In this document: positions 6,854-24,200 of the stretch, one piece after another
Position numbering within the stretch: position 1 is the first letter of the stretch
How the letters are laid out: every line of letters begins with the position of its first letter
Source of the DNA: an uncultured Clostridia bacterium
Lineage (GTDB): Bacteria > Bacillota > Clostridia > UBA1381
Reading direction: 5' to 3'
Assembly (NCBI GenBank): GCA_904395315.1
Contig: CAJFNT010000092.1
Coordinates: forward strand, 1 to 39,401
Length of the DNA: 39,401 nucleotides
Translations under genes and position numbers: made by a program
Notes under the pieces: model-generated
Told to the model about the DNA's origin: nothing
What the model saw: the letters and a program-made list of their open reading frames with translations, nothing else
Database searches by the model: none

Positions 6854-6928
6854 ATTGTATAAAAACCTCCTTGTTTGTGATTTCTGTGTGCAGATGGCTG
6901 CGCAATATAAAGGTCATCTGTATATGAT

Positions 6929-7866: not shown

Positions 7867-7868
7867 GT

Positions 7869-8890: not shown

Positions 8891-8930
8891 TATCAAAAAC
8901 CTTTCATTTGTTTTTTGTCCTTGCGGACGT

Positions 8931-8961
8931 AAAAAACCGATACCGCGCGCGGCGGCATCGG
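8931..8961 (-). terminator. Terminator after the AIM24-family gene
   Basis: On the minus strand CCGATGCCG (8953-8961) pairs with CGGTATCGG (8937-8945) with one G-T pair and a GC-rich seven-base loop, and is followed by six T residues (8931-8936). Confidence 0.8.
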
Positions 8962-8970
8962 CATGATAAA

Positions 8971-9648: not shown

Positions 9649-9709
9649 ATAAATTCCTCCTTTGTCCGAAGTGACGCGCGATCCCCGCGCTGTTTTTTCT
9701 TATAATAAT

Positions 9710-9738
9710 ATACTAACATTTTTAATGGAAAATGTCAA
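9710..9738 (-). promoter_or_regulatory. Promoter of the AIM24-family gene
   Basis: Minus strand TTGACA (9733-9738), 17-base spacer, TAGTAT (9710-9715), about 60 bases before the start codon. Confidence 0.7.
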
Positions 9739-9780
9739 TGGAGAAATAGAGGTTTTGGGGAATGAGATGTGTGAATATGC

Positions 9781-9825
9781 AAAAAAGATCCCGCAGACTG
9801 TGAAGATATCTGCAGGATCTTTTTT
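9781..9825. terminator. Terminator after the permuted NlpC/P60-like gene
   Basis: Arms 9781-9797 and 9809-9825 pair over 17 positions with one mismatch and end in A6/T6 on either side, so it can work in both directions. It directly follows the stop at 9827. Confidence 0.85.
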
Positions 9826-9826
9826 G

Positions 9827-11569
9827 TCACTTTATGTGCTTAAGGATACTTATACTGTCAGACAATACTATGTCATCGGGTAGTATCAGCATGGACAGCA
9901 CATCGCCCTTGACCGCGCTTTTAAGTCTGTGCCGCTGCTCTTTGCCGTCTATCAGTTCAACACCGCTGCTTTGCATGGCGTTTTTTATTATCTCAGCGCA
10001 CGTTACCTCTTTAGCTCCGTAAAAGCCGCCATAGCCGAACGCATAACCGTTATACTTTTCATACGCCGTCCTCACCATGTCGGCTGCTGCCGTTTCTGAA
10101 ATATCATTTACTCTGCACAGCACTATGGAATCGTAGTGTTTCCAATATCCGTCATTTTTGGAGCTCTCGGCGGTAATGAAGTCTTCCGGCATATCTGCCC
10201 CGACCCCAAGCTCAGAGTTGCGGGCTTGAAGCACATGTATCGTTTGGCCAGACACATCCATGACCATTGCAGAGTGGTTGAAATATCCGTATTTTGAATC
10301 GGACGCGGAGTTCCTGAAGAGAAGGATATCTCCGGGTCTGACCTCGGCGCACAGCTCCGCCCATCTGTTCTCGATCACAGACTGAGCTTCTCCGCCGGCC
10401 GAGGTTATTTCGGTATATGTTCCGTTTCCCAATGCCTCGTTCTTAAGCTGCAGGAAATCATTATCGATCTCTCCCTTTATCGCCTTTTTGTATGTATCGA
10501 GCTCCGTATCATCGCTGCCGCCTATAGACAGATCTATATACCGTTCGATCGCGAAAATGAGATCATTTTTTATCATAGTTTCGGGAGTTTCCGAATATAC
10601 CGAATCAGGTGATTTCAGCAAGTACAAATTGCTGCTGTCTGAACCGCTGCCCGCGGCGTATACCTCATTTTTATCAAATGTATACGCCGCCGCTTGCTTC
10701 TCGTTTGTGAGCGTGTAATCATCAAGCAGCTGACGCTTGTATATTTCACCGTTTTCATTGCTGATATAAAGCCTTCCCGAACGGGACAGATCGTATATGT
10801 CATAATCAGAGAATCTTTCTTCAATCTCATCAAGCTCGCTGTTAGATCGGGCGCTTTCATATGATCTGCCTATCAGAGAGAGCAGCGCCGCATAAGACTC
10901 TTTGTCCGGCGCCTTTTTTCCCCTCAGAACAGCTATTCCGTTTTGGTAGTCCCGAAAAGACGAGCAATTCATTATGTCTGCCAGAACATCCACAGGAAGA
11001 TATATCTGATCATCTTTCAATACAGGCTTTGACCGTATCAGCTCAGGATCGGTATTGTTATAAACTATGACATTAAACCCGGTCATGAACTGAGCCTTGC
11101 AGCCGTTTGAAAGGACGGTAACGATATTTGTGTTGTCATCGACCGATATTTCGGCTCCGAGAAATTCCGCTGTTTTGTTTAACGAGTAGACCATTTCTCC
11201 GTCGCTGATAAAAGGCTTTGAATCGGTCTTTTTCTCCTCTCCGTTTACAATAGCCGTATCGCTGTCGGCAAAGATGACCAGAGCTTCGTCTATAAGCGGC
11301 ATCACTTCCGACATATCCTTCGGCTCAACATGCTGATCACTGTCCTTTGTCTCGGTGTCTGCATGTCTATCGGCTGAAAGCCCTTCACCTCCGGTTATAG
11401 CACCGCGCGATCCCGCCGCGGTTTCTGCAGCCGCTTCCGACTGAGACGGCTGATCGTCTGTTGTGCCTGTATCCCTGCTCATGATCACCGCAGTTACGAC
11501 AGCGATCACCCCTACAGCTAAAGCGGCTATTATATACGGAATGCGATCTTTTCTCCATTTTATGCGCAT
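9827..11569 (-). CDS. Membrane-anchored stalk-domain protein with permuted NlpC/P60 (YiiX-like) fold
   Basis: A 580-residue protein with one N-terminal membrane helix (about 11-29) after a basic start and no cleavage motif. A Ser/Ala/Gly/Asp-rich linker follows, then a copper-amine-oxidase-N-like stalk domain at about 100-215, a middle region of unknown fold, and a C-terminal domain at about 400-560. That domain has RPGDILLFRN, then His432 in NHSAMVMD and later Cys524 in VTCAEIIKNA. The His-before-Cys order is that of permuted papain-like enzymes of the YiiX/LRAT-like group, which act on amide or ester bonds; the substrate here is unknown. It lies 60 bp after the SLH-VWA gene with AGGAGG before its ATG, so the two are probably cotranscribed. 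Function at the cell surface is inferred. Confidence 0.75.
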   Translation of the reverse strand: MRIKWRKDRIPYIIAALAVGVIAVVTAVIMSRDTGTTDDQPSQSEAAAETAAGSRGAITGGEGLSADRHADTETKDSDQHVEPKDMSEVMPLIDEALVIFADSDTAIVNGEEKKTDSKPFISDGEMVYSLNKTAEFLGAEISVDDNTNIVTVLSNGCKAQFMTGFNVIVYNNTDPELIRSKPVLKDDQIYLPVDVLADIMNCSSFRDYQNGIAVLRGKKAPDKESYAALLSLIGRSYESARSNSELDEIEERFSDYDIYDLSRSGRLYISNENGEIYKRQLLDDYTLTNEKQAAAYTFDKNEVYAAGSGSDSSNLYLLKSPDSVYSETPETMIKNDLIFAIERYIDLSIGGSDDTELDTYKKAIKGEIDNDFLQLKNEALGNGTYTEITSAGGEAQSVIENRWAELCAEVRPGDILLFRNSASDSKYGYFNHSAMVMDVSGQTIHVLQARNSELGVGADMPEDFITAESSKNDGYWKHYDSIVLCRVNDISETAAADMVRTAYEKYNGYAFGYGGFYGAKEVTCAEIIKNAMQSSGVELIDGKEQRHRLKSAVKGDVLSMLILPDDIVLSDSISILKHIK

Positions 11570-11629
11570 AGTGGCCTCCTGATCATTTGTATCAGTTATA
11601 TGTTGATATGTTCTCGTGCTGAGCTGTTA

Positions 11630-14600
11630 TCACAGACCGAATCTGTCAGCGATCGATTCTACCATGTCGATATTATCTCTTGCGTTTTCACATCTTGACA
11701 CTTCATTATCATAGACCTCGATATAGTTGTTTTCACCGCGTATCCGAGCATCCAACAGCAATGACACATATTTGATCAACTTGCTCTCCGTATGTGTCAT
11801 GATCGGATCGGAAACGTCATCGTAGAGATAATACTTATTTACAAAGTCGCACAGCACGTCAGAGATATCGCTCATGCACAGCATTCTGCCGCGCCCTTCG
11901 ACATCATCGCTCCATCCGAAAACTGCGTTGCATATCCCGAAGACCGCCATTCCCACATTGACCGCTATCCCGACAGGTCCGCTCGCCATCATCAAGATCA
12001 CATCAACTCCTATACCCATAGCGGATATCGTCACATTGTTTATTATCTGTGAAGCGACCTCTCCGAACTCATTCATCATAGAATTCAGCATAAATTCCGC
12101 CGCGTCGCGGGTGAACTGTCTGTTGCCGTTTACGGAGAGCTCATAGAATATCTCCGCGTTATCGCTTATCAGCGATGTGTTGGCGTTCAGTTCAGCAAGT
12201 CCGGCGGCAAGCTCATATATCCCTACAGCGGAAGCGCCTGCGTCATATACATCGGCCGTTAGGAACACGGCATCTACCGCGGTGCTGACTTTGTCTGCTA
12301 TCTTCAAAGCTTTTGTAAGTTTGGTCGGCATACCTTTCTTAACAAGCTTAGCCGTGCCTCCGTTTTGAACGCTCTTGATATCATTCTCGTAACGAGTGAT
12401 CCAGCCTTTATATGCGGCGATACTTCTTGTGCTCTTTCCGGCTTCCTTTGCGTCCTGATATGATTTTTTTGCTTTAAGGAGCTTGTCTCCCAACTCTTTG
12501 AGTATTGCTGCCTTTCTTGCATCGATCACGTCTCCTGCTGCTTCTACACCTGACCCTGCGAGTGAAGCGATATCACTGCTGTATTTGTCTATATACGCCG
12601 CTTTTTCATCTCCGAGCAGAGTCGCTGTGATCTCCTCCATCTCTTTTACGCGAACAAGATCCACTTTGGTTTGCTGTGTGCCGTTCACAAAGAAGTCAGC
12701 CATCTCGTTCGTATACTGTTTTTGCAGGTCCGTAAAAGTCACGGTGGCGATCGCGGAATCGAGGAACATAGAGCCGAGATCATCGCTGAACTCATCCGCG
12801 GCGCGCATATACTCATAGCTACTGTTGTCGGTCAGCAGTCTGAAATCTGTGGACGAATCGGACAGGTAATCGGGATTGAGCGGGTGCGGGTCATCGCCGT
12901 CCTCATATGAGTCAAAATCAGTATCGGATATTGTAGGATCCGACATATATCTTGCCATAACTCTGTTGTCCTGTTCAACGATCACTATTTCCTCGCCGTT
13001 GAGCAGCCCGTCGCCGTCCATGTCCGCGTCTCCGGAAAGATCCGTGCCCATAAGCTCTCTGGAACCGTTGCTCAGTCTCAGTTCACCCTCGAATATCAAT
13101 CTTGTGTAATAGTCCGAGATACCGTCATTATTACTGTCGGTATAGTAATCGATGGTTTCGTCTTTGACGAGCTCGAAACCGTCATATATCTGTTCCGCAG
13201 TCTCGGCATGATAGTATTTTCCGCCTGTGCTGTCTGCCAGATCCACAAGCAGAGCAGTCGCTATATCCTCGCCCAAGCCGACGGTATAAATAGTTATGCC
13301 CTCATCCTGGGCGTTTTCTATCACATTGTCATATGATCCGTCCGGCGCGGCAGGATCGTCTTCGCCGTCGGTGAGAGCGACTATGATCTTGTCGGCTCCG
13401 GGTCTGCCCGAGTCCGCAAGTTCTGTTATTGCCGAATTCAGACCGGCGTAAAGCGCGGTGCCGCCTCTGTTTCCTACAATGTTGTCTATCTGAGTCTCGG
13501 CTTCATCCTTGTCATATGTAAGCCCTGTGAGCAGCCTCTCGCTTCCCTCGGAAGCGAAGCCTATAACAGCCACACGGTCATTATCTCCCGCTGAGCCTGC
13601 GAACTGTTTCGCGGCGTCCACGCGTATTCTGTCCGGGTCATTGTTCGTGCCGTTCTTATTCGACTCCATGCTGCTGGACTCATCTATGACAAGGACCATA
13701 TCGAGGGCGCCCTGACCTGAGTTTTCCGACCCTGTGTTCTGAGACATCGGTCTTTTTATATCGGTGGCCCATGCCAGGTCGAATTCGACGCTGTTGAGCA
13801 GTATGTACTTAGCCTTGCGGGAGACCTTAGCTGTCACTTTGCCATTGCTCACGTTTTGGTTATCCACTTGCTCAAGTGTTCCGGTATCCTCATCGAAGCA
13901 GTATATCCTTGGCTGAAAATCGCTTTCCGCCTGTTCGATGGAAGTGTCATATTCAAAAGTTATCTCCGCGGATCCCAGTTCCCCGTCGACTGATATATCA
14001 TATCCGTTTGCTATGTAGCCGGGTATTGTCGGAGAAAGAAGCGGCTCATCGTTTAATGTAACAGGCTCGACTTCAAGACTTTCGACCTGATCCCCTTCAA
14101 GCTCCGCTGTCACATTCACCGCGATCGGTGTGGAATCGGTCACTTCTCCGACGGTCTCCGTCCTTGTTATAGACCCGTCATACGCGGTGGGATCTGTTCC
14201 GCAGTATATCTCCCAACCGTCATCTGCGCCGTCTCCATCTGTGTCGGCGTTATGCGGGTCTGTGCCGTATACGTTTTCCTCATCCTCGTCGGAAAGACTG
14301 TCATTGTCCGAGTCCTTTATCAACAGCGCTTCGGCGGCCGTGTTTTCTATGCCGCTGTCTATTTCCGTTCCGTTGTGATATACTCTGTAAACCATTATCG
14401 CGGCCTGTTCGCGTGTTGTGTAATCCAAAGGTGCGATCCTGTCGCCGTATCCGTTTATAACATTCTGTGTTATGGCGTACGAAACGCTCGGGAATGCCCA
14501 TGCCGATATCCCGTCTGCGTCAGTGTAGCTTGTTCTCAGCTCATACACGCTTGGATAATCATATATATTCGCGCCTTCAAACGCCTTATCGATGCATCTT

Positions 14601-14992
14601 ACAAGCATAGTGGCGAGTTCCTGTCTTGTTATCCTGACATCCGGCGCAAACTCGTCCTCCGATATGCCGTAGACGATGTTTAACCCGTAGGCCTTGGCTA
14701 CCGATTCGTTGTCGGTATCCTCAAAAGGCATATAGACCGCCTCGGACTCATTGCCGGTAACAGCGGTATAGAGGTTTACCACCAGCTCACAGAATTCTTC
14801 TCTTGTGATCTCCTGCTGATAATCGGACTTGATATCGTCCGTTAACAGATCTGCCTCATCGGCAAGTTCAAGCTCCTCCGCTGCCCAATCAGACGGAGAA
14901 CTCTGTGCCATCGCTGCCGGCGCTGAAATAATGAACAGCATAGTCAGGATCAGCACATAAGAGATCGCAGATCTCATCTTAGACCTTTCCAT
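11630..14992 (-). CDS. Surface protein with SLH repeats, calcium-binding repeats and a von Willebrand A domain
   Basis: Secreted protein of 1120 residues. A signal peptide (1-29) is followed by three SLH repeats (about 33-210) for attachment to cell-wall polymer. Next come thrombospondin-type calcium motifs (226-270, for example DSDNDSLSDEDEE and DTDGDGADDG), a beta-rich region, and a VWA domain (about 430-610) with an intact MIDAS: Asp437-Ser439-Ser441 in DESSSM, Thr512 in GGTALY and Asp542 in LTDGEDD. A second calcium-repeat block spans 615-705. The last 400 residues are mostly helical and of no family I recognise, with a Gly/Ala/Val-rich hydrophobic stretch near residue 1000. Binding of a protein or matrix ligand is inferred. 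A promoter lies at 15063-15091 and AAAGGGG precedes the ATG. It precedes the YiiX-like gene on the same strand. Confidence 0.85.
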   Translation of the reverse strand: MERSKMRSAISYVLILTMLFIISAPAAMAQSSPSDWAAEELELADEADLLTDDIKSDYQQEITREEFCELVVNLYTAVTGNESEAVYMPFEDTDNESVAKAYGLNIVYGISEDEFAPDVRITRQELATMLVRCIDKAFEGANIYDYPSVYELRTSYTDADGISAWAFPSVSYAITQNVINGYGDRIAPLDYTTREQAAIMVYRVYHNGTEIDSGIENTAAEALLIKDSDNDSLSDEDEENVYGTDPHNADTDGDGADDGWEIYCGTDPTAYDGSITRTETVGEVTDSTPIAVNVTAELEGDQVESLEVEPVTLNDEPLLSPTIPGYIANGYDISVDGELGSAEITFEYDTSIEQAESDFQPRIYCFDEDTGTLEQVDNQNVSNGKVTAKVSRKAKYILLNSVEFDLAWATDIKRPMSQNTGSENSGQGALDMVLVIDESSSMESNKNGTNNDPDRIRVDAAKQFAGSAGDNDRVAVIGFASEGSERLLTGLTYDKDEAETQIDNIVGNRGGTALYAGLNSAITELADSGRPGADKIIVALTDGEDDPAAPDGSYDNVIENAQDEGITIYTVGLGEDIATALLVDLADSTGGKYYHAETAEQIYDGFELVKDETIDYYTDSNNDGISDYYTRLIFEGELRLSNGSRELMGTDLSGDADMDGDGLLNGEEIVIVEQDNRVMARYMSDPTISDTDFDSYEDGDDPHPLNPDYLSDSSTDFRLLTDNSSYEYMRAADEFSDDLGSMFLDSAIATVTFTDLQKQYTNEMADFFVNGTQQTKVDLVRVKEMEEITATLLGDEKAAYIDKYSSDIASLAGSGVEAAGDVIDARKAAILKELGDKLLKAKKSYQDAKEAGKSTRSIAAYKGWITRYENDIKSVQNGGTAKLVKKGMPTKLTKALKIADKVSTAVDAVFLTADVYDAGASAVGIYELAAGLAELNANTSLISDNAEIFYELSVNGNRQFTRDAAEFMLNSMMNEFGEVASQIINNVTISAMGIGVDVILMMASGPVGIAVNVGMAVFGICNAVFGWSDDVEGRGRMLCMSDISDVLCDFVNKYYLYDDVSDPIMTHTESKLIKYVSLLLDARIRGENNYIEVYDNEVSRCENARDNIDMVESIADRFGL

Positions 14993-15062
14993 AATGTATC
15001 CCCTTTCTTATCTGTGTTTATTTACATGACTGCCGCGGATCCTGATGCAGCCCTGTAAATAA

Positions 15063-15091
15063 AGTATATCATATCCAGTTTATAAATTCAA
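15063..15091 (-). promoter_or_regulatory. Promoter of the SLH-VWA gene
   Basis: Minus strand TTGAAT (15086-15091), 17-base spacer, TATACT (15063-15068), about 70 bases before the start codon. The remaining 15092-15240 stretch of this 340-bp intergenic region shows no convincing gene. Confidence 0.65.
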
Positions 15092-15240
15092 GGACATTTT
15101 TGTGGGATTTGCCTATAATATGCAGAAAGAACGGGACCTTCACGGTGGATCACGGCTGCTCTCTTTTAAAGCGGATATTGTTTTCTGTGTCATCGTCTCC
15201 TTGATATTGCCTTTAAATCCTTTTTATGATATAATTATTT

Positions 15241-15272
15241 ACGGATTTTGCACGAAAAAAGCGGATTCTGCA
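15241..15272 (+). promoter_or_regulatory. Tandem LytTR-type operator upstream of the regulator/kinase operon
   Basis: Two direct repeats, ACGGATTTTGCA at 15241 and GCGGATTCTGCA at 15261, are 20 bases apart from start to start. The second starts 19 bases before the -35 box. An equivalent pair with identical spacing lies at 17431-17462. Direct repeats one to two helical turns apart just upstream of -35 are how LytTR regulators such as AgrA, ComE and VirR bind. Assignment to the adjacent LytTR regulator is inference. Confidence 0.7.
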
Positions 15273-15279
15273 AAAAGAA

Positions 15280-15308
15280 TTGTATTACAGTGAAAAATTT
15301 AGTATAAT
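15280..15308 (+). promoter_or_regulatory. Promoter of the LytTR regulator/kinase operon
   Basis: TTGTAT (15280-15285), 17-base spacer, TATAAT (15303-15308). The weak -35 fits a promoter that needs an activator. Confidence 0.7.
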
Positions 15309-15332
15309 CATTTTGTAAAAGGGGACATTTGT

Positions 15333-16037
15333 ATGAGATACATTATAGTAGATGATGATAAGTTTTTTAGCGAGACCATGAGCAGTTTGCTCGTCGGCGC
15401 TCCCGAAACGGAAGACGCGGAGATACGGAGGCACGGTTTTGATGACGTTGAGCTGTCAGGGATAGAGGACGATGACGTGTTCTTCCTTGATATAGCAGAC
15501 GGGAGCGATGAAAACGCGGGGATAAGGCTGGCCCGCAGGATACGCGATGAAAACGATCGGGCGCATATAGTTTTTATAACATCGTATGAGAGTAAAGCGC
15601 GGGACACTATTACAGGACTGATACGGCCGTCGGGTTTTTTGGTAAAGCCGATATGCGGTGTCGAAGAAGAAAAACTCCGCGTTTTTCTGAAACTCCTGCA
15701 TGAGAAAGATAATAGGGCCATAAGCCTTAAGAGCGGGACAAAATATTTCGATGTCGCGGTCAGAGATATAATTTACATACGAAAGACGGACAGAAAAACA
15801 TCCGTGTATACCGAGAATTCATTTTATCAGGTGAGGCAAACATTTGTAAAGATATTAAAGGAGCTTGACGATGATTTTATCGTTGTGGACAAAGGCGCTG
15901 CTGTTAACATCAAAAAGGCGCGCGCGTATGAGCCCGCAACGCGTTTGATACATATGGAGGGCGGTGTTACCGTATACTGCTCCAGAGACCGGGCAAAGAT
16001 GCATCGTGATATATTGAACAGATTAGAGGTGATATGA
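15333..16037 (+). CDS. LytTR-family response regulator (AgrA/ComE type)
   Basis: Cytoplasmic DNA-binding regulator of 234 residues. The receiver domain (about 1-120) has the acidic pocket IIVDDD at the N-terminus, the probable phospho-acceptor Asp53 in VFFLDI, and the conserved Lys of FLVKP near 113. The C-terminal half is a LytTR domain, recognisable from the ISLKSGTKYFDVAVRDIIYIRK start, the YQVRQTFVKIL segment and the VVDKGAAVNIKKA block. LytTR domains bind tandem direct repeats; matching repeats lie upstream of this gene and of the cassette after the kinase. The ATG follows AAAGGGG. Its stop overlaps the kinase start (ATGATG at 16034-16039). No AgrB or AgrD gene is nearby, so the signal is unknown. 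Confidence 0.93.
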   Translation: MRYIIVDDDKFFSETMSSLLVGAPETEDAEIRRHGFDDVELSGIEDDDVFFLDIADGSDENAGIRLARRIRDENDRAHIVFITSYESKARDTITGLIRPSGFLVKPICGVEEEKLRVFLKLLHEKDNRAISLKSGTKYFDVAVRDIIYIRKTDRKTSVYTENSFYQVRQTFVKILKELDDDFIVVDKGAAVNIKKARAYEPATRLIHMEGGVTVYCSRDRAKMHRDILNRLEVI

Positions 16038-17329
16038 TGGACTTTGTATATACGGTATCGTCGGCGCTGGTGGGCGTGTCGTGGTCGGTGAGTCTGGTGT
16101 TGCTTTTGACGCGTGTGTTTGATATCAGGATGTCCGCAGCGAAGATAACGTTTTATATTGCCAGTATCACCTGTCTGTTTACGGCGATGTTCATGGTCTT
16201 TGACGACAGCATGGTGGAATACAGGACTACCGTTACAATTGTTTACGTATTCGCGCTTATATACTCGAACATAAAAAAACTGCAGAAAAGCGTGATGATC
16301 TTCAGCGTATATGTGGTGATATTGTCTGCCGCCGAAACGGTTGATATAATCCTTGTGTACAATGTGTTCGATTATACGCCTATAACATGCTTTGTGATAA
16401 ACACGATAAGCATGCAGCTGTTTACAGCAGCGGCATACGGTGTGAAAAAGCTTCTTATAAGTCTTGTGAATGCGGAAAAGACAGACAGGGAGACAAAGCT
16501 GCTCACTGTCCTTGCCGCGATATCGATATTCCTGGCTACCTACGTTCAGCTGGAATTTGAATACAGTCTGTTAAAGGGAGAGGATATGAATCCGAAGACA
16601 TATGGATTGTTTCTGGCGATAACGGCGGTCACATATCTTGCTGCGGCGATCGCGGCGATGGGATTTATAAAGAGCGCGAGCGAGGAGCGCAAGAACAGGA
16701 TAATAACGGAGCAGCAGCGGATACTTGAGGAAATGCACGACGGAACACGCGTGTTCCGCCACAATTATAAGAACACGATAATAGCGATAAAGGGCTATTG
16801 TGACACAGGCGATTATGATAGTCTTGCGGAGCGGATAGACGAGCTCTATAATGATATGGACGATGTTTACAGCGGTGGTCAGCTAAGAGATGTCTTGAAG
16901 ATAAGCGACGCGGGGCTGAGAAATCTTATAATGTTAAAAACGCTCGAGGCGCAGCGCAGAGATATCTCGGCAGATCTGAAGATCAGCGGAGAACATTTTG
17001 ACGCGTTTGAAAATATAAATGTGCTCAATGCCGTAGGAGCGCTTTTGGACAATGCTGTTGAATCGGCAGAGAGCTCGGCGGAAAAATATATGGCTCTGGA
17101 GCTCGGTAATGACAGCGGAAGACAGACGATGATAATATCGAACAGTATAGATAAAAAACCGGATATGAGCCGGATAATGAGCAAGAACTATTCAACTAAG
17201 GATCAGAGCGGACTGGGATTATATTATGTCAGCCGCGTGATAGCCAAACGAAAGAATATGGACATAGCGTTCAACTGCACCGACAAATTGTTTTGCGTGT
17301 GTCTGGAGACTGTGGAAACCGGAGAATAA
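16034..17329 (+). CDS. AgrC-like GHKL sensor histidine kinase
   Basis: A 431-residue membrane kinase. About six hydrophobic segments fill the first 215 residues, followed by a coiled-coil-like stretch and the dimerisation/phosphorylation helix with His243 in VFRHNYKNTI. The GHKL ATPase domain has the N box with Asn340 in GALLDNAVESA and the G box GLGLYYV (393-399). This is the quorum-sensing-type HPK10 architecture, whose members sense peptides or cell-envelope cues. Two adjacent ATGs (16034 and 16037) are possible; both overlap the regulator stop, which indicates coupled synthesis. A terminator follows at 17390. The kinase presumably phosphorylates the LytTR regulator; its ligand cannot be deduced. 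Confidence 0.93.
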   Translation: MMDFVYTVSSALVGVSWSVSLVLLLTRVFDIRMSAAKITFYIASITCLFTAMFMVFDDSMVEYRTTVTIVYVFALIYSNIKKLQKSVMIFSVYVVILSAAETVDIILVYNVFDYTPITCFVINTISMQLFTAAAYGVKKLLISLVNAEKTDRETKLLTVLAAISIFLATYVQLEFEYSLLKGEDMNPKTYGLFLAITAVTYLAAAIAAMGFIKSASEERKNRIITEQQRILEEMHDGTRVFRHNYKNTIIAIKGYCDTGDYDSLAERIDELYNDMDDVYSGGQLRDVLKISDAGLRNLIMLKTLEAQRRDISADLKISGEHFDAFENINVLNAVGALLDNAVESAESSAEKYMALELGNDSGRQTMIISNSIDKKPDMSRIMSKNYSTKDQSGLGLYYVSRVIAKRKNMDIAFNCTDKLFCVCLETVETGE

Positions 17330-17389
17330 GGTCGTATTCGCAATAAACAAGTAATTTTCAAAATTTTGTATATAACGATTCCTGTAGTG

Positions 17390-17420
17390 AGCAGCGGAAT
17401 TTTCCGCTGCTTTCTGCTTT
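17390..17420 (+). terminator. Terminator after the kinase gene
   Basis: AGCAGCGGAA (17390-17399) and TTCCGCTGCT (17402-17411) form a tight hairpin followed by an interrupted T run. It separates the regulator operon from the next promoter 50 bases later. Confidence 0.7.
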
Positions 17421-17430
17421 TATATGATTT

Positions 17431-17462
17431 ACGGATTTTGCACAAAAATAACGGATTATGCC
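17431..17462 (+). promoter_or_regulatory. Second tandem LytTR-type operator, upstream of the AT-rich cassette
   Basis: ACGGATTTTGCAC at 17431 and ACGGATTATGCC at 17451 repeat with a 20-base period. The first repeat and its flank (ATTTACGGATTTTGCAC) are identical to the site before the regulator gene. The distances from the first repeat to the -10 box (62 bases) and from the second to the -35 box (19 bases) are also identical at both loci. Confidence 0.72.
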
Positions 17463-17469
17463 ATTTGGC

Positions 17470-17498
17470 TTGTGCCGGCAGGATGGATGTGGTATAAT
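17470..17498 (+). promoter_or_regulatory. Promoter of the lipoprotein/zinc-ribbon cassette
   Basis: TTGTGC (17470-17475), 17-base spacer, TATAAT (17493-17498). As at the regulator operon, the -35 is weak and the -10 perfect, which suits activated transcription. Confidence 0.68.
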
Positions 17499-17576
17499 TG
17501 TGATATGGATAAATTGTGAATATTATATTAATAAAAATGAGAGGCGGATGATCATGCGTAAATTTATTTTAGAGAG

Positions 17577-17942
17577 GTGCGTTTTTATGAAAAAATAGTT
17601 ATTTTTATTGCTGCTGTAACAACGATGTCAGTGATATGTTCTTGCGGTTCGAATCCTGACAAAGAGCTTCTTGGCAGCTGGGATGGGACCGAAGCTGTAG
17701 ACAACGCAAACAGTACCTATTCCTATGTTTTCTATGAAGGCGGACAATATGATCAGTATAGAAATAAGGCTGGAGAAGGAAAAGAAGATTATTATACATC
17801 GGGGCACGGTACATGGTCCATAGTGGATGATTCACATTTGAGGATCGTTGATTATGCGGTAGGAGCAACTACATTTGAGTTTGATTTTGAAGACGGAAAT
17901 CTTATTTTGGATGGCGAAACGTTTACCAAGGGCGAGATATAA
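17577..17942 (+). CDS. Small lipoprotein with lipocalin-like domain, start probably frameshifted
   Basis: The frame encodes a hydrophobic signal ending in a lipobox (ICSC) and a mature domain starting CGSNPDKELLGSWDG. That domain is beta-rich and Trp/Tyr/Gly-rich, like small secreted lipocalin-like domains. The start is odd. The only in-frame standard start, GTG 17577, overlaps the AGAGAGG ribosome site itself. A well-spaced ATG lies at 17587, but it reads ATG AAA AAA TAG. One more A in the six-base A tract (17590-17595) would give Met-Lys-Lys-Ile-Val-Ile-Phe and join the open frame, a textbook lipoprotein start. So this is a frameshift, a phase-variable tract or a sequencing error. It is the first gene behind the second LytTR-type site. 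Function unknown. Confidence 0.6.
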   Translation: MRFYEKIVIFIAAVTTMSVICSCGSNPDKELLGSWDGTEAVDNANSTYSYVFYEGGQYDQYRNKAGEGKEDYYTSGHGTWSIVDDSHLRIVDYAVGATTFEFDFEDGNLILDGETFTKGEI

Positions 17943-18113
17943 AGTGTAAAAAGATTGTTATTTGATCAGTTAAAAAATAGGAAGGGAGCTTTATAAGTAT
18001 ATTATACCATAAAAGAGGAGTGATCTCGCTATATTTAACGAAAAACGTATAAAACCTAAGAATTTAGAGTTTTGTAATTGGATAGGAACCTTGAACTTAT
18101 GGAGGAATTCATT

Positions 18114-18623
18114 ATGGCAAATATTTTTGATAAGATGGTAGTAGGTATAAACAAGGGAGTAAATACAGTAAGCGAAGGATCAAAGATGCTTGTTGAGAAG
18201 GCAAAGCTTAATACACAGATACAAGATTATGAGAAGGAAAGGGCAAGGTTGTATCAGGATATAGGAACATTTATATATAATTTACAAACGAGCGGAGAGA
18301 TAAATATTCCTCAATGTAACGATATGTGCGATGAGGTAACCGTATTGGGAAAGAAGATAGAGGATCTTCAGCTGAAAATACAAGAACTTGATAGCAGCAG
18401 AATTCAAAGCAGTTACAGCGTGCCTCCGGAAGATGGTATAGCGTGTTCTTCATGTGGATGTGTAAATACAAGAGATTCAAAATTCTGTGCCGGATGCGGA
18501 AAACCTTTGTCAATACCTGATGCGGGTGCTGAAAGTATTGTGTGTACCTGTGGTAGAATGAACAAGTCCGGAATGAAGTTCTGTGTAAACTGCGGTAAAC
18601 CGCTGGTTGATGTAAGATATTAA
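18114..18623 (+). CDS. Coiled-coil protein with two C-terminal zinc ribbons
   Basis: A 169-residue cytoplasmic protein. Residues 1 to about 100 are helical and charged (MANIFDKMVVGINKGVNTVS and onward, with a QIQDYEKERARLYQDIGTF coiled-coil stretch). Two zinc-ribbon motifs follow, CSSCGCVN...CAGCGKPL and CTCGRMN...CVNCGKPL. Such ribbons often mediate protein or nucleic-acid contacts; no enzyme signature is present. ATG 18114 is chosen because GGAGGA lies seven bases before it; an upstream ATG-less extension to 18078 has no ribosome site. The 170 bases between this gene and the lipoprotein frame are AT-rich and hold no clear gene. It shares zinc-ribbon character with the gene at 19296, which suggests a common role. 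Confidence 0.72.
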   Translation: MANIFDKMVVGINKGVNTVSEGSKMLVEKAKLNTQIQDYEKERARLYQDIGTFIYNLQTSGEINIPQCNDMCDEVTVLGKKIEDLQLKIQELDSSRIQSSYSVPPEDGIACSSCGCVNTRDSKFCAGCGKPLSIPDAGAESIVCTCGRMNKSGMKFCVNCGKPLVDVRY

Positions 18624-18678
18624 GATCTGCTATGATGAATAACAGATCATTTATATTGAGGAGGCAAGGTGAAATAAA

Positions 18679-19278
18679 ATGACTTTAGATATATCAAATA
18701 TAAGTCTGATAATTGCTGCTGTTGCAGTAGGGATAATTATTTTGTTTTTGGTGGGCTTTTTAACGGGTGCTATAAAAAAATTAAGTACTATGTTGATATC
18801 ATCCTGTGTTGTGCTTGTTCTTACATTCGCGTCAATATACGGATATGAAGAAGGATATTTTGATTTTTTTACAAATGATAAAATAACAAACATGAGTGAC
18901 ACAGAAATGATAGAAAATCGCATACAGCTGTTTTTGGATGCGTACAATTCCGGAGACATGGACGGTGTGTTGGATTGCATGGATAAAAAAACAAAAAATC
19001 TCATCGAGTCTTCGATGGGGATAACAGATGGCATTCTTAATGGTTTGTCTGGCATGGACATTAACATGTCAGAAATATTTGGTCTAAGTGTTGGTATGGT
19101 ATCCAATGGAGATTTGTTGAATATAGATGATGTAAACATAAATATAGGTTCGGATAATGCTGCGACCGTAAGTGCTATTTTAACGTATGAGGATAAATAT
19201 AGCGGAGCATCATCAGAGACGGTTACATTTGATATGGTAAAAGAAAATGATGATTGGTACATAAGTGACATGAATTGA
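18679..19278 (+). CDS. Membrane protein with extracytoplasmic NTF2-like domain
   Basis: A 199-residue protein. Two adjacent hydrophobic helices (about 9-31 and 37-56) are followed by an acidic extracytoplasmic part of about 140 residues. That part starts with a helix (MSDTEMIENRIQLFLDAYNSGDMDGVLDCMD) of the type seen at the start of NTF2/SnoaL-like and DUF4878-like domains and ends in the beta strands VTFDMVKENDDWYISDMN, also typical of that fold. No catalytic residues can be named. GAGGAGG lies about 20 bases before the ATG with GTGAA between, so spacing is loose, but the frame has no better start. It is 17 bases from the next gene and clearly in the same unit. Confidence 0.68.
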   Translation: MTLDISNISLIIAAVAVGIIILFLVGFLTGAIKKLSTMLISSCVVLVLTFASIYGYEEGYFDFFTNDKITNMSDTEMIENRIQLFLDAYNSGDMDGVLDCMDKKTKNLIESSMGITDGILNGLSGMDINMSEIFGLSVGMVSNGDLLNIDDVNINIGSDNAATVSAILTYEDKYSGASSETVTFDMVKENDDWYISDMN

Positions 19279-19295
19279 AATAGGAGGGATTTATT

Positions 19296-19868
19296 ATGTA
19301 TTGTAATCAATGTGGAAGCAAGATGGATGATAATCAAAGATTTTGCACAAAGTGCGGAGCGAGGTTGAACAATACTGGAACTCCAACAGCGGCACAATCA
19401 AATTTTAGATCGGTATATGGCAGGAGTTCGAACGCACACGTGATCGTTGCCATAGGATTTGTTAGCTTTGTTTTAGCAGGAATAATGATGCTAACATCTC
19501 TCTTTAAGGCGGGAATGTGGGGATTATCGACACCGGTAGATATTTTTGAGGTCTTGGAGATAGAATATTTAAGATGGATTATTATGATCTGCTATGTAAT
19601 ATCAGCAGTGATGCTTATATTGTTTGTTGTAAATCGCAATAAGCAATCAGCTATGTTTATATTACCTGCAATGATTGTTTCAGGAGCTGTGTTTGTGGCT
19701 ATTTTAGTAGTTTTATTTGCGGCACAAGATGAATTAGGGGGATATGGAGCAGAACTATCTTTATCTGGTTCAGGCGTTTTTTGCTTGATAATGTCAATAA
19801 TGACAGCGTTTTTACTAATTGTTGCATTGTTCAATCTAAAATCATCAAAAATTAAAAGGATGATTTAA
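19296..19868 (+). CDS. Zinc-ribbon multi-pass membrane protein
   Basis: A 190-residue protein beginning with a zinc ribbon, MYCNQCGSKM...FCTKCGARL, then a polar linker and about four membrane helices (roughly 48-70, 92-114, 122-144 and 158-180). This layout (cytoplasmic ribbon tethered to a membrane domain) is common in Clostridia and has no general assigned function. TAGGAGGG lies about nine bases before ATG 19296. It ends the AT-rich group; a separate promoter follows at 19914. Together with the soluble double-ribbon protein and the NTF2-like membrane protein it looks like one membrane-associated complex, but that is inference. Confidence 0.75.
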   Translation: MYCNQCGSKMDDNQRFCTKCGARLNNTGTPTAAQSNFRSVYGRSSNAHVIVAIGFVSFVLAGIMMLTSLFKAGMWGLSTPVDIFEVLEIEYLRWIIMICYVISAVMLILFVVNRNKQSAMFILPAMIVSGAVFVAILVVLFAAQDELGGYGAELSLSGSGVFCLIMSIMTAFLLIVALFNLKSSKIKRMI

Positions 19869-19913
19869 TATGAGATTTTGCATACTGAAAGCGCATCGTT
19901 TCCGAGGTGATTA

Positions 19914-19942
19914 TTGACATTTCGATTTTTCTGTGATAGAAT
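19914..19942 (+). promoter_or_regulatory. Strong promoter upstream of a structured leader
   Basis: TTGACA (19914-19919), 17-base spacer, TAGAAT (19937-19942). The predicted transcript begins near 19949 and meets a terminator hairpin about 100 bases later, before any gene. Confidence 0.72.
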
Positions 19943-19948
19943 GGTGAC

Positions 19949-20060
19949 AAAAGAAATAATCGAGCGGTTATTTCTGCAAAGGATTTTTCAATTAAGAGCT
20001 TTATGTTCAAAACCGTCTATCTGCTGCAGAGATAGGCGGTTACTTTTTTATGTAAGCTCT
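19949..20060 (+). ncRNA. Candidate structured leader RNA or small RNA
   Basis: Three pairings are visible. AGAAATAA (19952-19959) pairs with TTATTTCT (19968-19975). The terminator stem is 20011-20022 with 20030-20041. AGAGCTT (19995-20001) pairs with AAGCTCT (20054-20060), enclosing the terminator and its T run. A transcript from the promoter at 19914 would either end as an RNA of about 100 bases or read through into the gene at 20085. It matches no riboswitch class I can recognise by eye. Confidence 0.4.
20011..20050 (+). terminator. Terminator or attenuator before the beta-propeller-like gene
   Basis: A 12-bp stem, AACCGTCTATCT with AGATAGGCGGTT (one G-T pair), has a seven-base loop and is followed by ACTTTTTT. 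Confidence 0.75.
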
Positions 20061-20084
20061 GGATCAAGGAATGGGAGGAGAATC

Positions 20085-20930
20085 ATGAATAAGAAACCGG
20101 TATCAGCTATTATTGCTGCAATTGCTCTTTTGAACGGTGTAAGTGCTTTTGCCGCAACCGAAGAGGCGTGTTATTTCAGTAATCTATCGAATAATTGGGA
20201 CACGGTTTACGGCACACCTCATTATGCTTCAAATGGCGGTATATATTTTACAGACGGGAATATACATATAAGTTCATTGCCATATGGAATGATAAATGAA
20301 GGGGATATATATGATATATGCTGTTATAATGGGCGGATCTATTATACTACAGGTCCTGAAGGATCGGATATATCGATGCCGATAAAAATATACTCATGCG
20401 ATATTTACGGAGGAAACAATATATTGCTTGCAGACAATGCGGAGGCATACGGAGCTGCGTTTATAATTGATAATGTATTGTATTATCAGGAATATAGATC
20501 GACACCGGGATATGGACCAGAAGGATACAACGGTGGGGTGTCAAGGATAGATCTGAGTAATCTTTCATGGAAACGGATAGTATCCGGAGGTGTTTGGTTG
20601 ACGTATTGTGACGGAGATTATGCTTATTATACAGACCATAGCAATATATATGCTGCAGTTGATGTCAATGGAAATTATGTTATAGATATTGATCCGGGCA
20701 GTGATGAATATGCGTATGATGTTTTTATCAAGGGAGACCGCACATATTATATATTAGATGGTGGATTGTATGAAAGAACGAGAAACGGCGGCAATGTAAG
20801 GCTGATATGCACGGTGCCGGAGAATTCTCATATTAATAATATATCTTCAAATTACGTGTATTACTCGCAGCTTGTTCGCAGACCGGGACGTGTAAATATG
20901 GTAGCTGTGACCAACAGAGTTGACCGATGA
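20085..20930 (+). CDS. Secreted DUF5050-type beta-propeller-like protein
   Basis: A 281-residue exported protein. The signal peptide MNKKPVSAIIAAIALLNGVSAFAA is followed by repeated short strands rich in Tyr, Gly and Asp, with recurring patterns such as GRIYYTTG, NVLYYQEY, GDYAYYTDH and DRTYYILDGG. This matches the DUF5050/low-density-receptor-like propeller domain found in many clostridial surface proteins, which probably binds a ligand rather than acting as an enzyme. The start at 20085 follows GGGAGGAG; an open frame back to 19914 overlaps the promoter and terminator and is rejected. It lies downstream of the leader RNA candidate and is followed by a terminator. Confidence 0.72.
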   Translation: MNKKPVSAIIAAIALLNGVSAFAATEEACYFSNLSNNWDTVYGTPHYASNGGIYFTDGNIHISSLPYGMINEGDIYDICCYNGRIYYTTGPEGSDISMPIKIYSCDIYGGNNILLADNAEAYGAAFIIDNVLYYQEYRSTPGYGPEGYNGGVSRIDLSNLSWKRIVSGGVWLTYCDGDYAYYTDHSNIYAAVDVNGNYVIDIDPGSDEYAYDVFIKGDRTYYILDGGLYERTRNGGNVRLICTVPENSHINNISSNYVYYSQLVRRPGRVNMVAVTNRVDR

Positions 20931-20985
20931 AGCAATGCAATTGTTATAAAATTGAAATACCAAATAAATAAGGTATATATGACTA

Positions 20986-21018
20986 AGGGGCAGGCATTAT
21001 TTTGTTTGCCTCTTTTTA
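20986..21018 (+). terminator. Terminator after the DUF5050-type gene
   Basis: AGGGGC (20986-20991) can pair with GCCTCT (21008-21013), or alternatively AGGCA with TGCCT, followed by a T5 run. The stem is modest. It is the first recognisable element of the 307-bp gap before the CAP-domain gene. Confidence 0.5.
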
Positions 21019-21058
21019 TGGTTTACGGATATCTGAATTTTTACCAAAATTTAATCCC

Positions 21059-21126
21059 TTGTAAAATACTATGGATTATGCTATAATGAACACACTCAGT
21101 GAAATAAAGCCGCCCGGCGGCTTTAT
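21059..21126 (+). promoter_or_regulatory. Promoter and 5' hairpin of the CAP-domain gene
   Basis: TTGTAA (21059-21064), 17-base spacer, TATAAT (21082-21087). About ten bases after the predicted transcription start a GC-rich hairpin forms from ATAAAGCCGCC (21104-21114) and GGCGGCTTTAT (21116-21126), nested in AACACA/TGTGTT. There is no T run, so a 5' stabilising hairpin or regulatory element is likelier than a terminator. A single TTTACGGAT half-site (21022-21030) resembles the LytTR-type repeats but has no partner at the right spacing. Confidence 0.55.
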
Positions 21127-21237
21127 GAAAATGTGTTTATTGTAACGGTGTGAGGCAATGCTGAACGCATTGCGCTTATGTTATAATAAAGTACCCGAAA
21201 GAGGGGCAGAATTTTACGAGGAGGAAATGTACATAGC

Positions 21238-24200
21238 ATGAGAAAAATAACGAACAGGCTGCCGGTGCTGGCTCTGGCGGCTGTGATGGCGGCTTCAACG
21301 CTTGGCGCCGCTTTGGAGCCGGTCACAGCTTTGGCTGCGGCGCCGGCGCTCTCGGAGAGCGCGGACTATGGTATCCCGGCGGAGGTAGTAGGCGAATGGG
21401 AATATGTCGGCTCAAATCAGCTGGAGAGCGCTAACCGCGTATGGGTGCGCGGCAACGGCTATGGTGTGTCTGCGGAGGACAGCGGGAAGGGATATTTCAA
21501 TGATTTCGCCCCGGGGCTCATCAACACCACATCATCGGGATATAAGCAGGCTTATGACACGCTTGTGAGCGACAACGCCCTTTATGATTATGTGCGCGAT
21601 GTTAGGGTGTGCATATTGTATCTGCCGGAGTGCCCGTATTCGAAGAGCTATCTGCCGAAATTCCGTCAGATAGCGGAGGCGGCGGGCGCACCGGTGCTGC
21701 TGATAGATGTTTCGAAGTATTCGGCGAGTCTGATCGCATATTATAATTCCGTGATGCATGGTGTGACGTCACCGGCGGTGCTCTATCTTGACGCGGACGA
21801 GACCGCTGCGGCTACGGGACGCTCTCTGCCGAAGGGAAGAACAAAGGTGCACAGCACGGCCGAATTTGTGGAGATACTTAAAGAGGCAGGCTATGACAAC
21901 GCTAAGGATCTGCCCGGGAGCGAGAGCAGCGGTTACAGCACAGAGCAGGAGTATGAGCGCAGAGTGCTGATGGAGACGAACCGCCGCCGCATAGAGAACG
22001 GACGGGTGCCGCTGGCGACCTTGCCGCAGATGGAAGAGGCTGCGGATATACGCGCGGAAGAGCTGTTGGGCAGCATGACGCACCGCCGTCCGGACGGGTC
22101 ATATTATGTGTCGGTGTTCGATGAGGTGGGGATAAACGCGTCGCTGTATTATACCGGTGAAAATATATGCGGCGGCGGAGCAGTTTCACTGCCGGAGTCG
22201 GCGGTGCGCGCATGGATGAACAGTCCGGGGCACAGGGCGAATATATTGAGCGAGAATTTTACACATCTGTCTGTCGGATATGAGCATCAGGACGAGGACC
22301 AGAGCAAGTATGCCGACAACTGGGTGCAGCTCTTTCTGGGCAGCTGTGAGCCGGAGCAGATCGAGCTGAGCCGTCCGGTGGTAAACACTTCGATACAGGG
22401 TGTCCCGATAAGCGATATGGATATAGATCTTGTTCTGACATGCGAGCACGGCACGAGCACGATCCCGCTCATCGACGAGATGTGCGAGGGTTACGACAGC
22501 GGCAGCGCGGGGCTTCAGACCGTTAAGGTACGGTATGGAGACACTGTGATCCCGCTTGAGATAAATGTCGGGAATACCGAGCCGCATGAGCTTATTGCCG
22601 ATATGGTGACGTTTGCGGAGGATGTTTCCGATATAGTGTATAATTCACGCGCCCAGACGCCGCGGGTAAGAGTGTCGAATGCGGCGGGGGATCATGCGCT
22701 TATTGAGAACTATTCATATACGATATCATACGATAATAACATAAATGCCGGTACCGCGGAGGTAACGGTCACAGGTAAGGGCAATTACACGGGGATGGTG
22801 AAAAAGACGTTCGAGATACAGCCGAGAGATATTTCGGATATGACTGTGAGCGGTATAGAGGAGGCATATGAATATACCGGAAAGCCCATAACTCCGGGGG
22901 TCACTCTATCGGACGGCTCGCGCATACTTCATGAGGGTATCGATTATACTGTGTCGTATACCGATAATGTGGGCGAGGAGATAAAGGGGACATATGGCCC
23001 CGATGGAGTTGCAGGGACCGCAACGGTGACACTTGAGGGGACAGGCAATTATACGGGCACAAAGACAGAGCATTTCGGATTCACGCTTCCGGAACTGTAT
23101 AAGCATTCGGCTACTGTCGCATATGTGCTCCTGAATAATCCGAGCTATACATCCACGTATGACTTCTTGAAGGCGGTCTATGAAAAGAGCCCGGATGTCA
23201 CATATCCCATGGTCATAAAGCAGATAGAGCGGAATCTTGAAAAGGCTGACGAGGCTGTAGGGCTTGAAAATATCATGGCATATGATATATATCCGGCGGC
23301 TAACAAGCGGCTTAACGAGTATTACCGTTTCCGCGCCGAAGTGGATAAAGGTATATTCACAGACGAGATAAAGCAGGCTCCGGAGGTCAGCTCGGAGGTC
23401 ATCGATCAGCAGTCGGTGAATATAGAAGGACTCGGAAATGTCGCGGCAGTGACTGCCGATACGGAATCCGTGCAGCTTGCGGTGACAGATACTGATGCCG
23501 CAGAACTCAGCGTAGACAAGACGATATACGATGCTTCCGGTGCTGTCGCTTTGGATATAGCCCTTAAAATAGACAGAGAGGAGGTATCGGAGCTGGGCGC
23601 GCCCGTTACCGTGACAGTGAACATTCCCGATAGCTTCAGCTCCGGTGACGACCTTGCGGTCCTGCACTATAAAGACGGAGAAGGATCCGAGCCGGAGGCT
23701 CTGCCCGTATTTACGGATTCGGATGCCGGCACGATAAGCTTTGTTACAGACAGCTTCAGCCCGTATGTGATCACAAGAAAGCTTGCGGTATACAGCTCGG
23801 GACAGACATCGGCGCCTGCGGCAAACGATGAAAGCGTGACCGGTGTCACGTTCGGAGAAGAGAATGACAAGGGACCGGGCGAGCCGAGAGATGTTTCGGC
23901 TTACAGCTCCGGCGCGGGAGAGATAACGGTGGAGTGGCTCCCTGCAGAGGACAGCGAGGGCTGGACGGTGACGGGATATATAATTTCGTATTCGGAGAGC
24001 GAGGACATGAGCAATGCAAAAACCGTGTCTGTAAAGTCGGATGAGTCGGAGACTGTTCTTACCGGGCTTGCGGCGGGAAGATATTATATAACTGTTTCTA
24101 CCGCTGCCGATTCCGATGCGACAAAGGGAGTCATCAGGCAGTCGGTGACGGCGAGCGCCGAGGTGTACAACACGGCGGATGCGCCTGGGCAGCCATCGGA

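What the first reader, a model, noticed from the sequence alone, without database searches (positions are those of the whole stretch)
15241..17498. Twin LytTR-type control regions link a two-component system to the neighbouring cassette
Directly seen: (A/G)CGGATTnTGC repeats with a 20-base period precede both the LytTR regulator gene (15241/15261) and the AT-rich cassette (17431/17451). In both places the first repeat starts 62 bases before TATAAT and the second starts 19 bases before a weak -35. The run ATTTACGGATTTTGCAC is identical at both loci. Known: LytTR regulators bind direct repeats spaced by about two helical turns upstream of weak promoters. Inference: the regulator activates its own operon and the downstream lipoprotein/zinc-ribbon/membrane genes, defining a small dedicated regulon without AgrB/AgrD.
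Basis: partly seen in the sequence, partly recalled or inferred. Interest (0 to 1): 0.75.

Follow-up and report, generated by a model that had tools for sequence, protein, structure and literature searches.

The report
Self-switching sensor pair with twin boxes
An uncultured bacterium's two-gene sensor system and the small gene cluster beside it carry the same paired DNA boxes in front of them, so the system probably switches on both itself and the cluster; this is a new example of a known kind of bacterial switch, with a hint that a cell-to-cell signalling locus elsewhere in the genome uses nearly the same boxes.

Summary
Two CGGATTnTGC repeats, 20 bases apart, lie 19 bases before a weak -35 and 62 before TATAAT, ahead of a LytTR regulator gene (P1) and an AT-rich cassette (P2). 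In the 95 genomes of the order that were held, the exact pair occurs six times: before the five copies of this regulator that I found, in four genomes, and at P2. A matrix trained only on other genomes' P1 boxes scores window P1 38.1 and P2 37.8; the next separate site scores 13.6. Best reading: an AgrC/AgrA-like kinase-regulator pair that activates itself and, in this genome, a recruited cassette of envelope-type proteins.

Autoregulation is well supported; cassette control rests on one genome, since P2 and the cassette were not found in relatives. 'Without AgrB/AgrD' holds for the locus only: the genome has three AgrB genes, and one agr-like locus (contig C60) has near-identical boxes before agrB and a small AgrD-like gene. 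Cross-wiring is possible. Caution: the LytTR signature FxRxHRS reads FIVVDKG, and there are no binding or expression data. New member of a known kind.

The parts
15241..15273 (+). P1 twin box: ACGGATTTTGCAC / GCGGATTCTGCAA, period 20
   Evidence: present before the five regulator genes of this family that were found
15280..15308 (+). P1 core promoter TTGTAT - 17 nt - TATAAT
15333..16037 (+). Response regulator P0001: receiver plus LytTR domain; predicted to bind the boxes
   Evidence: Pfam LytTR E 7.5e-14; Response_reg E 1.8e-5, 25.3 bits, below the 30.2 cut-off; D7-D9, D53, T83, K105 invariant in 5 sequences
16037..17329 (+). Sensor kinase P0002, GHKL type, five hydrophobic stretches in the N-terminal half
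   Evidence: Pfam HATPase_c_5 E 3.9e-9; H242, N339 and G392-L395 invariant in the 4 sequences aligned (the L048 copy left out); hydropathy
17389..17412 (+). Terminator-like hairpin after the regulator-kinase pair; this stretch is also conserved in G001
17431..17463 (+). P2 twin box: ACGGATTTTGCAC / ACGGATTATGCCA, period 20
   Evidence: not found after the kinase in relatives
17470..17498 (+). P2 core promoter TTGTGC - 17 nt - TATAAT
17577..17942 (+). First cassette gene, lipoprotein-like P0003 (by eye: hydrophobic start with a Cys); start codon uncertain
   Evidence: no Pfam or NCBIfam match at E 0.01
18114..18623 (+). P0004, helical-looking N-terminal part plus double zinc ribbon (listed ORF from TTG 18078; likely ATG at 18114)
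   Evidence: Pfam DZR E 1.3e-7; start position
18679..19278 (+). P0005, N-terminal membrane anchor plus unknown domain
   Evidence: no Pfam match; weak NCBIfam Rv0361_Cterm E 0.0024, below cut-off; hydropathy
19296..19868 (+). P0006, N-terminal zinc ribbon plus four hydrophobic stretches
   Evidence: Pfam Zn_Ribbon_1 E 1.5e-8; hydropathy

Best explanation
This is an autoregulated AgrC/AgrA-like two-component system. A membrane GHKL kinase (P0002) phosphorylates a LytTR response regulator (P0001). A dimer binds two direct repeats CGGATTnTGCAc, two helical turns apart, just upstream of a weak -35, and helps RNA polymerase to start. At P1 this gives positive feedback on the regulator-kinase operon, which ends in a terminator-like hairpin. 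At P2, immediately after the hairpin, the same box drives a lineage-specific, AT-rich cassette of a lipoprotein-like protein, two zinc-ribbon proteins and an anchored protein. Shown: positions, spacing, conservation of P1 and rarity of the box. Inferred: binding, activation rather than repression, phosphorylation, and that P2 acts like P1. The signal is unknown.
For: Exact pair before 5 of 5 regulator copies found and at P2, and nowhere else in the 95 genomes of the order held. The spacing 20 / 19 / 17 can be read in all six promoters (in G051 a 20/16 reading scores equally), although the rest of the promoters differ. The out-of-sample matrix ranks P1 and P2 far above the rest. Receiver residues are intact and kinase motifs conserved. 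G051 keeps the box with no AgrB found (84% complete). Known LytTR regulators act from direct repeats upstream of -35, with positive feedback (PMC6193735, passages; PMC4227749, passages). The VirR motif CCAnTT-n15-CCAGTT-n3-Cac (PMC4963840, passage) shares C---TT---CAC with CGGATTnTGCAC.
Against: The LytTR signature FxRxHRS reads FIVVDKG here and F(L/I)(V/I)(V/I)DKG in the five sequences; R198, N201 and S202 of AgrA contact DNA (PMC4227749, passage), so binding may differ or be weaker. The receiver match is below Pfam's cut-off. P2 and the cassette have no conservation support. No binding or expression data exist here.
Confidence: 0.72

Rival explanations
1. Shared box: the response regulator of the C60 agr-like locus (P0009) also binds P1 and P2, and P0001 also binds the C60 promoters, so a peptide quorum signal and the window kinase feed one four-promoter regulon. 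This adds to the main reading rather than excluding it.
For: The C60 agrB and agrD-like promoters carry the box with one mismatch each and the same 20/19 spacing; matrix scores 29.5 and 29.8. Repeats near the other AgrB genes of this genome differ: C134 (about TTnTTCACGTAA, period 21) and C48. Two LytTR regulators sharing repeats is known: PlnC/PlnD (PMC2714321, passages); HdrR/BrsR have overlapping regulons (PMC6193735, passages). RgaR, a regulator not encoded with agr, directly activates agrB1D1 (PMC10602386, passage).
Against: P0001 and P0009 LytTR domains are only 16% identical in my alignment. In G001, which has both systems, the agr box is CYGATTTTGC with period 21, one mismatch per repeat away. 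G013, which has no close copy of this kinase, has CTGATTTTGC/CAGATTTTGC, and G015 has CGGATTTCAC twice, so likeness may be a family trait.
Confidence: 0.35
2. The boxes at P1 and P2 belong to another regulator altogether (for example the agr regulator), and P0001 does not bind them.
For: P0001's non-canonical LytTR signature; similar boxes at an agr-like locus of the same genome.
Against: The box precedes P0001-type genes in 5 of 5 cases, including G051, where no AgrB was found (84% complete), and G053, where no other pair within 3 mismatches lies at its one AgrB locus. LytTR genes of these two genomes were not all listed.
Confidence: 0.12
3. P2 is a passive copy of the P1 control region (duplication), not selected for cassette control.
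For: A 17-base identical run; P2's spacer ACAAAAATAA is closer to ACAAAAATTA, the spacer in 3 of the 4 other P1 sites, than the window's own P1 spacer is; found in a single genome.
Against: Apart from box, TTGT and -10 the two promoters are not alike; P2 has its own -35 and -10 at the exact distances and lies between a terminator-like hairpin and the cassette.
Confidence: 0.15

Closest known systems
VirSR of Clostridium perfringens / RgaS and RgaR of Clostridioides difficile
   Same: AgrC-like kinase and LytTR regulator outside an agr locus, in a cell that has agrBD; two direct repeats upstream of target promoters; skeleton C---TT---CAC (PMC4963840 passage; PMC10602386 passages; PMC2688746 passages).
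   Different: Box letters CGGATT instead of CCAGTT; period 20 instead of 21; here the regulator's own operon has a box; FxRxHRS altered; RgaS and RgaR are described as orphans, here the two genes are adjacent; no boxed small RNA or toxin gene seen.
S. aureus AgrA/AgrC
   Same: LytTR regulator acting from paired repeats ahead of two promoters (P2 and P3 there; PMC4227749 passage); P0002 aligns over positions 5-407 with the kinase beside AgrB on C134 (22%).
   Different: No AgrB or AgrD at the locus; different box; AgrA promoters have 18- and 20-base spacers, here 17.
LytTR regulatory systems (HdrRM, BrsRM of S. mutans)
   Same: Positive feedback through direct repeats ahead of the operon's own -35 (PMC6193735 passages).
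   Different: Those have a membrane inhibitor partner (that they lack a kinase is recalled); here a GHKL kinase and a receiver domain.
Agr-like locus on contig C60 of the same genome
   Same: Box (one mismatch per pair), 20/19 spacing, two boxed promoters.
   Different: Has AgrB and a small AgrD-like peptide; regulator only distantly related; consensus TTGACA -35.

Membership tests
LytTR two-component systems (AgrCA/VirSR type) | LytTR DNA-binding domain in the regulator | tested here: met
   Pfam LytTR E 7.5e-14, above cut-off; profile hit to AgrA LytTR 3bs1, E 0.00096
LytTR two-component systems (AgrCA/VirSR type) | Receiver domain with phospho-acceptor residues | tested here: met
   Response_reg E 1.8e-5, but below Pfam's curated cut-off; D7-D9, D53, T83, K105 invariant in 5 sequences
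LytTR two-component systems (AgrCA/VirSR type) | Membrane GHKL histidine kinase in the same operon | tested here: met
   the two genes overlap by one base
LytTR two-component systems (AgrCA/VirSR type) | Two direct repeats about two helical turns apart just upstream of a -35 | tested here: met
LytTR two-component systems (AgrCA/VirSR type) | FxRxHRS signature in the LytTR domain | tested here: not met
   FIVVDKG in the window, F(L/I)(V/I)(V/I)DKG in the five sequences. I treat it as a common signature, not an absolute requirement: other LytTR proteins aligned here vary too (C60: FVRIYQS), as does AgrA itself (FFRCHNS)
LytTR two-component systems (AgrCA/VirSR type) | Regulator binds the repeats and activates | not testable with these tools
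   needs gel-shift and reporter
agr quorum-sensing locus | AgrB and AgrD genes in the locus | tested here: not met
   no AgrB among the neighbours scanned; the AgrB genes of this genome lie on C48, C60 and C134
VirSR/VirR boxes | CCAGTT repeats, period 21 | tested here: not met
   CGGATT, period 20 against the motif in PMC4963840
LytTR regulatory systems (LRS) | Membrane inhibitor as partner, no kinase | tested here: not met
   partner is a GHKL kinase

The most novel reading that the evidence does not exclude
Two distant LytTR regulators of one bacterium (16% identical, one with a rewritten FxRxHRS signature) have come to read the same twin box, so that an orphan kinase pair and a peptide quorum-sensing agr locus form one four-promoter circuit, with the orphan kinase possibly a second receptor of the agr peptide. 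In this species three of four C60 agr repeats carry the G at position 2 that all twelve window-type repeats have, while the agr repeats read in G001 (0 of 2) and G013 (0 of 2) do not; against this, those of G015 (2 of 2) also have it, and G015 has no close copy of the kinase.
Probability: 0.25. Interest if true: 0.6.

Novelty: new member of a known kind. Interest (0 to 1): 0.36.

Why it matters
It gives a very clean DNA signature for a LytTR regulon in uncultured Clostridia around Candidatus Ornithomonoglobus: in the 95 genomes of the order held, the exact pair marks this system and nothing else. It shows a target cassette apparently recruited under a ready box. If the sharing with the agr locus is real, it would be a natural test of how two distant LytTR domains read one sequence and how quorum sensing is wired into orphan kinase pairs.

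Tried and rejected
Box as chance: rejected by the genome, family and order scans and by the out-of-sample matrix. Large hidden regulon: I examined 19 hits with 1-3 mismatches that are not at LytTR or agr loci; 18 lie inside mechanical reading frames of 90 aa or more on either strand, and the other, L058, is near a contig end. One of the 18 (G001, L052) has a promoter-like sequence after it, but 54 and 77 bases away instead of 39 and 62. The scans asked for more than was held: 400 asked and 95 searched in the order, 300 or 100 asked and 70 searched in the family, 100 asked and 16 in the genus.

Recognition residues: I first took R154 of P0001 as the equivalent of AgrA H169 and R218 as that of R233 (checkpoint note). 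The alignment with 3bs1 puts T156 opposite the His I take for H169 and is off by one at R233, so I make no residue claim beyond FxRxHRS. H169 as a contact residue is recalled; R233A as a DNA-binding-defective mutant is in PMC4227749.

Origin of the cassette: no relative of P0005 in viral contigs by the patterns used; none of P0006 in plasmids. In the family only distant P0005 matches, the best 28% in G005, beside an H+ pyrophosphatase gene and not this cassette. Only P0005 was searched for as a protein in the family; the other cassette genes were compared with G001, G051 and G053 as DNA only. Rfam: nothing in 15000-21500 at E 0.5. The unrelated sequence after the kinase's hairpin in G001 was not identified; the one Rfam match there is below its gathering score.

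A window-type system elsewhere: the kinase search in GTDB genomes gave 4 loci; it finds close relatives only, so there may be more distant copies. The C60 AgrD-like peptide has no Pfam or NCBIfam match at E 0.1; I call it and its likes AgrD-like from size, place and mutual likeness.

Literature: 6 searches. I read passages only, never a whole paper. Three papers hold the name Ornithomonoglobus (listing); I opened none of them. I did not search for the box letters in print, so I do not claim that the box is unpublished.
Full report
What was checked. The repeats are at the stated places with the stated spacing: starts 15241/15261 and 17431/17451, -35-like TTGTAT (15280) and TTGTGC (17470), TATAAT at 15303 and 17493, and a 17-base identical run from 15237 and 17427. 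Apart from the box, TTGT and the -10 the two promoters are not alike.

Chance. Single boxes with up to one mismatch are at background in the window. The pair is not. In the window's own assembly (G000, 195 contigs, 2.56 Mb, 89% complete) the exact pair occurs twice, both here. Up to 3 mismatches gives ten places: these two, two on contig C60 with one mismatch, and six with three mismatches. In 16 genomes of the genus with up to 2 mismatches there are ten places: the four of G000, P1 of G001, one at an agr-like locus of G013 and four inside reading frames. In 70 genomes of the family with up to 1 mismatch there are nine: five P1 sites, P2, the two of C60, and one (G071) inside an ABC-transporter gene, taken as chance. 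In 95 genomes of the order the exact pair occurs six times: P2 and the P1 of the five regulator copies found, that is the window's, one in G001, one in G051 and two in G053. The backward-pattern control gave one match and none in the other five scans.

Who carries the system. The kinase search in GTDB genomes gave four loci: L045 (Candidatus Ornithomonoglobus merdipullorum, 81%), L047 (Candidatus O. intestinigallinarum, 68%), L046 and L048 (two copies in one uncultured Clostridia bin, 75 and 74%). By contig number and position these are G001, G051 and G053. All have the exact pair before the regulator with period 20, then 19 to the -35, a 17-base spacer and TATAAT; in G051 a 20/16 reading scores equally. 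A 13-base weight matrix from these eight repeats only, with no window sequence in it, gives the window's P1 38.1 and P2 37.8, then 13.6 for the next separate site; ten randomised windows peak at 14.9.

The proteins. P0001 has a LytTR domain and a receiver (the receiver scores below Pfam's cut-off, but D7-D9, D53, T83 and K105 are invariant among five sequences). P0002 is a GHKL kinase with conserved H242, N339 and GLGL in the four sequences aligned and several hydrophobic stretches. It aligns over positions 5-407 with the kinase beside AgrB on contig C134 (22%, E 7.6e-11), but by BLASTP only over 230-404 with that of C60. The LytTR signature FxRxHRS reads FIVVDKG in the window and F(L/I)(V/I)(V/I)DKG across the five. 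That is evidence against a textbook reading and is told as such.

The second promoter. P2 stands directly after a terminator-like hairpin (17389-17412) in a stretch that G001 also has, so the cassette probably needs its own promoter. The cassette reading frames are 34-40% G+C, against 46% for the regulator-kinase pair and 49-54% for the other stretches measured. In the four relative loci no pair with up to 3 mismatches (at most 2 per repeat) follows the kinase; for L045 only 213 bases are available before the contig ends. P0005 was not found in G001, G051 or G053, nor was any of the four cassette genes as DNA. In G001 the gene to the right of the cassette, a CAP-domain protein, has other genes upstream. 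The cassette with P2 thus looks like a lineage-specific addition; which came first is unknown.

The agr connection. Contig C60 holds AgrB (Pfam E 1.4e-28), a LytTR regulator, a GHKL kinase and a 56-residue AgrD-like peptide (no family match). Boxes with one mismatch per pair and 20/19 spacing stand before agrB (spacer 18) and before the peptide gene (spacer 17), with a consensus TTGACA. Related loci have related boxes: G013 CTGATTTTGC/CAGATTTTGC, G015 CGGATTTCAC twice, G072 CTGATTTCAC twice, G001 CCGATTTTGC/CTGATTTTGC with period 21, beside an AgrB 74% identical to C60's. The repeats near C134's and C48's AgrB are different, and none was found at C27, which has a related kinase. AgrB counts: G000 three, G001 two, G053 one, G051 none. 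So 'without AgrB/AgrD' is true of the locus, not of the cell. G000, where both boxes nearly coincide, is where cross-talk is expected.

How it most likely works. A phosphorylated P0001 dimer sits on two repeats facing the same side of the helix upstream of a poor -35 and recruits polymerase, with positive feedback at P1 and, here, output at P2. This follows known LytTR systems: AgrA (PMC4227749), VirR (PMC2688746, PMC4963840), RgaR (PMC10602386), PlnC/D (PMC2714321), HdrR (PMC6193735); passages only were read. The VirR motif CCAGTTnnnCac and CGGATTnTGCAC share C---TT---CAC. With a start assumed 7 bases after the -10 (about 17505), the G's of the two P2 repeats fall at -52/-51 and -72/-71, close to the G-51 and G-72 that matter for RgaR at spoZ (PMC10602386, passage); this rests on an assumed start.

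A by-product. At the end of the cassette (19914-20049) lies a strong promoter and a roughly 100-nt stretch that folds better than all 200 shuffles (z -3.9). It recurs, without a twin box, at three places in G053 (72-76%) and one in G001. Beside three of these four copies a short hydrophobic peptide gene runs towards it on the other strand; none does beside the window's copy. From recall this is the layout of a type I toxin-antitoxin pair. I did not pursue it further.

Verdict. Real, conserved and specific; a new member of a known kind. The regulator-to-itself link is strong for sequence evidence, the regulator-to-cassette link rests on one genome, and the most interesting open point is the near-identical box at an agr-like locus.

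Noticed in passing
L019 (contig C60 of the same genome) 6354-9532, minus strand: Agr-like locus: AgrB, LytTR regulator, GHKL kinase and a 56-aa AgrD-like peptide (SANSPCTGPFYEPDEP core), with boxes of nearly the window type before agrB and before the peptide gene.
   Followed up: yes
window 19914-20049; L141 929-1069; L142 953-1069; L143 964-1100; L144 924-968: Recurrent small-RNA-like element: TTGACA-17-TAGAAT promoter, about 100 nt with two hairpins (z -3.9), terminator; found in G053 (three places) and G001 (one). Convergent 20-35 aa hydrophobic peptide ORFs lie beside L141, L142 and L144, not beside L143 or the window copy. Looks like a type I toxin-antitoxin family (recalled), with only the RNA half at the window; no Rfam match above gathering score.
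   Followed up: partly
window 21039-21187; L121 1984-2113; L145 575-722: A second repeated non-coding stretch with a hairpin, ahead of the CAP-domain gene, recurs elsewhere in G001 (85%) and in G053 (72%).
   Followed up: no
L101 4218-5091 (contig C134); L124 (contig C48): Two further AgrB genes in the genome; C134 has an AgrD-like peptide and a different repeat (about TTnTTCACGTAA, period 21), C48 lies near a repeat CTGCAGGATTGGTCATTT, period 20.
   Followed up: partly
L104, L103, L122, L131, L135, L137: Agr-like loci in the family carry a variety of twin repeats of period 20-21, several just before a -35: a ready set for comparing LytTR domains with their boxes.
   Followed up: partly
window 17554-17598: Start of the lipoprotein-like gene is odd: the ATG at 17587, well spaced from GAGAGG, runs into TAG after three codons, in frame with a 14-codon leader ORF from 17554; the open frame starts at GTG 17577.
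   Followed up: no
window 8971-15000 versus L045 6309-7300: In G001 the AIM24 gene lies directly beside P1; in the window two long reading frames (580 aa with a copper amine oxidase N-terminal domain, 1120 aa with SLH and VWA domains) lie between, so both flanks of the kinase pair vary.
   Followed up: partly
L120 (G001, contig end after the kinase): Right after the conserved terminator hairpin G001 continues with unrelated sequence up to the contig end; it looks like the edge of an inserted element but was not identified.
   Followed up: partly
L048 about 3848-3943: The kinase reading frame of this copy ends at 3848 although the similarity continues to 3943.
   Followed up: no
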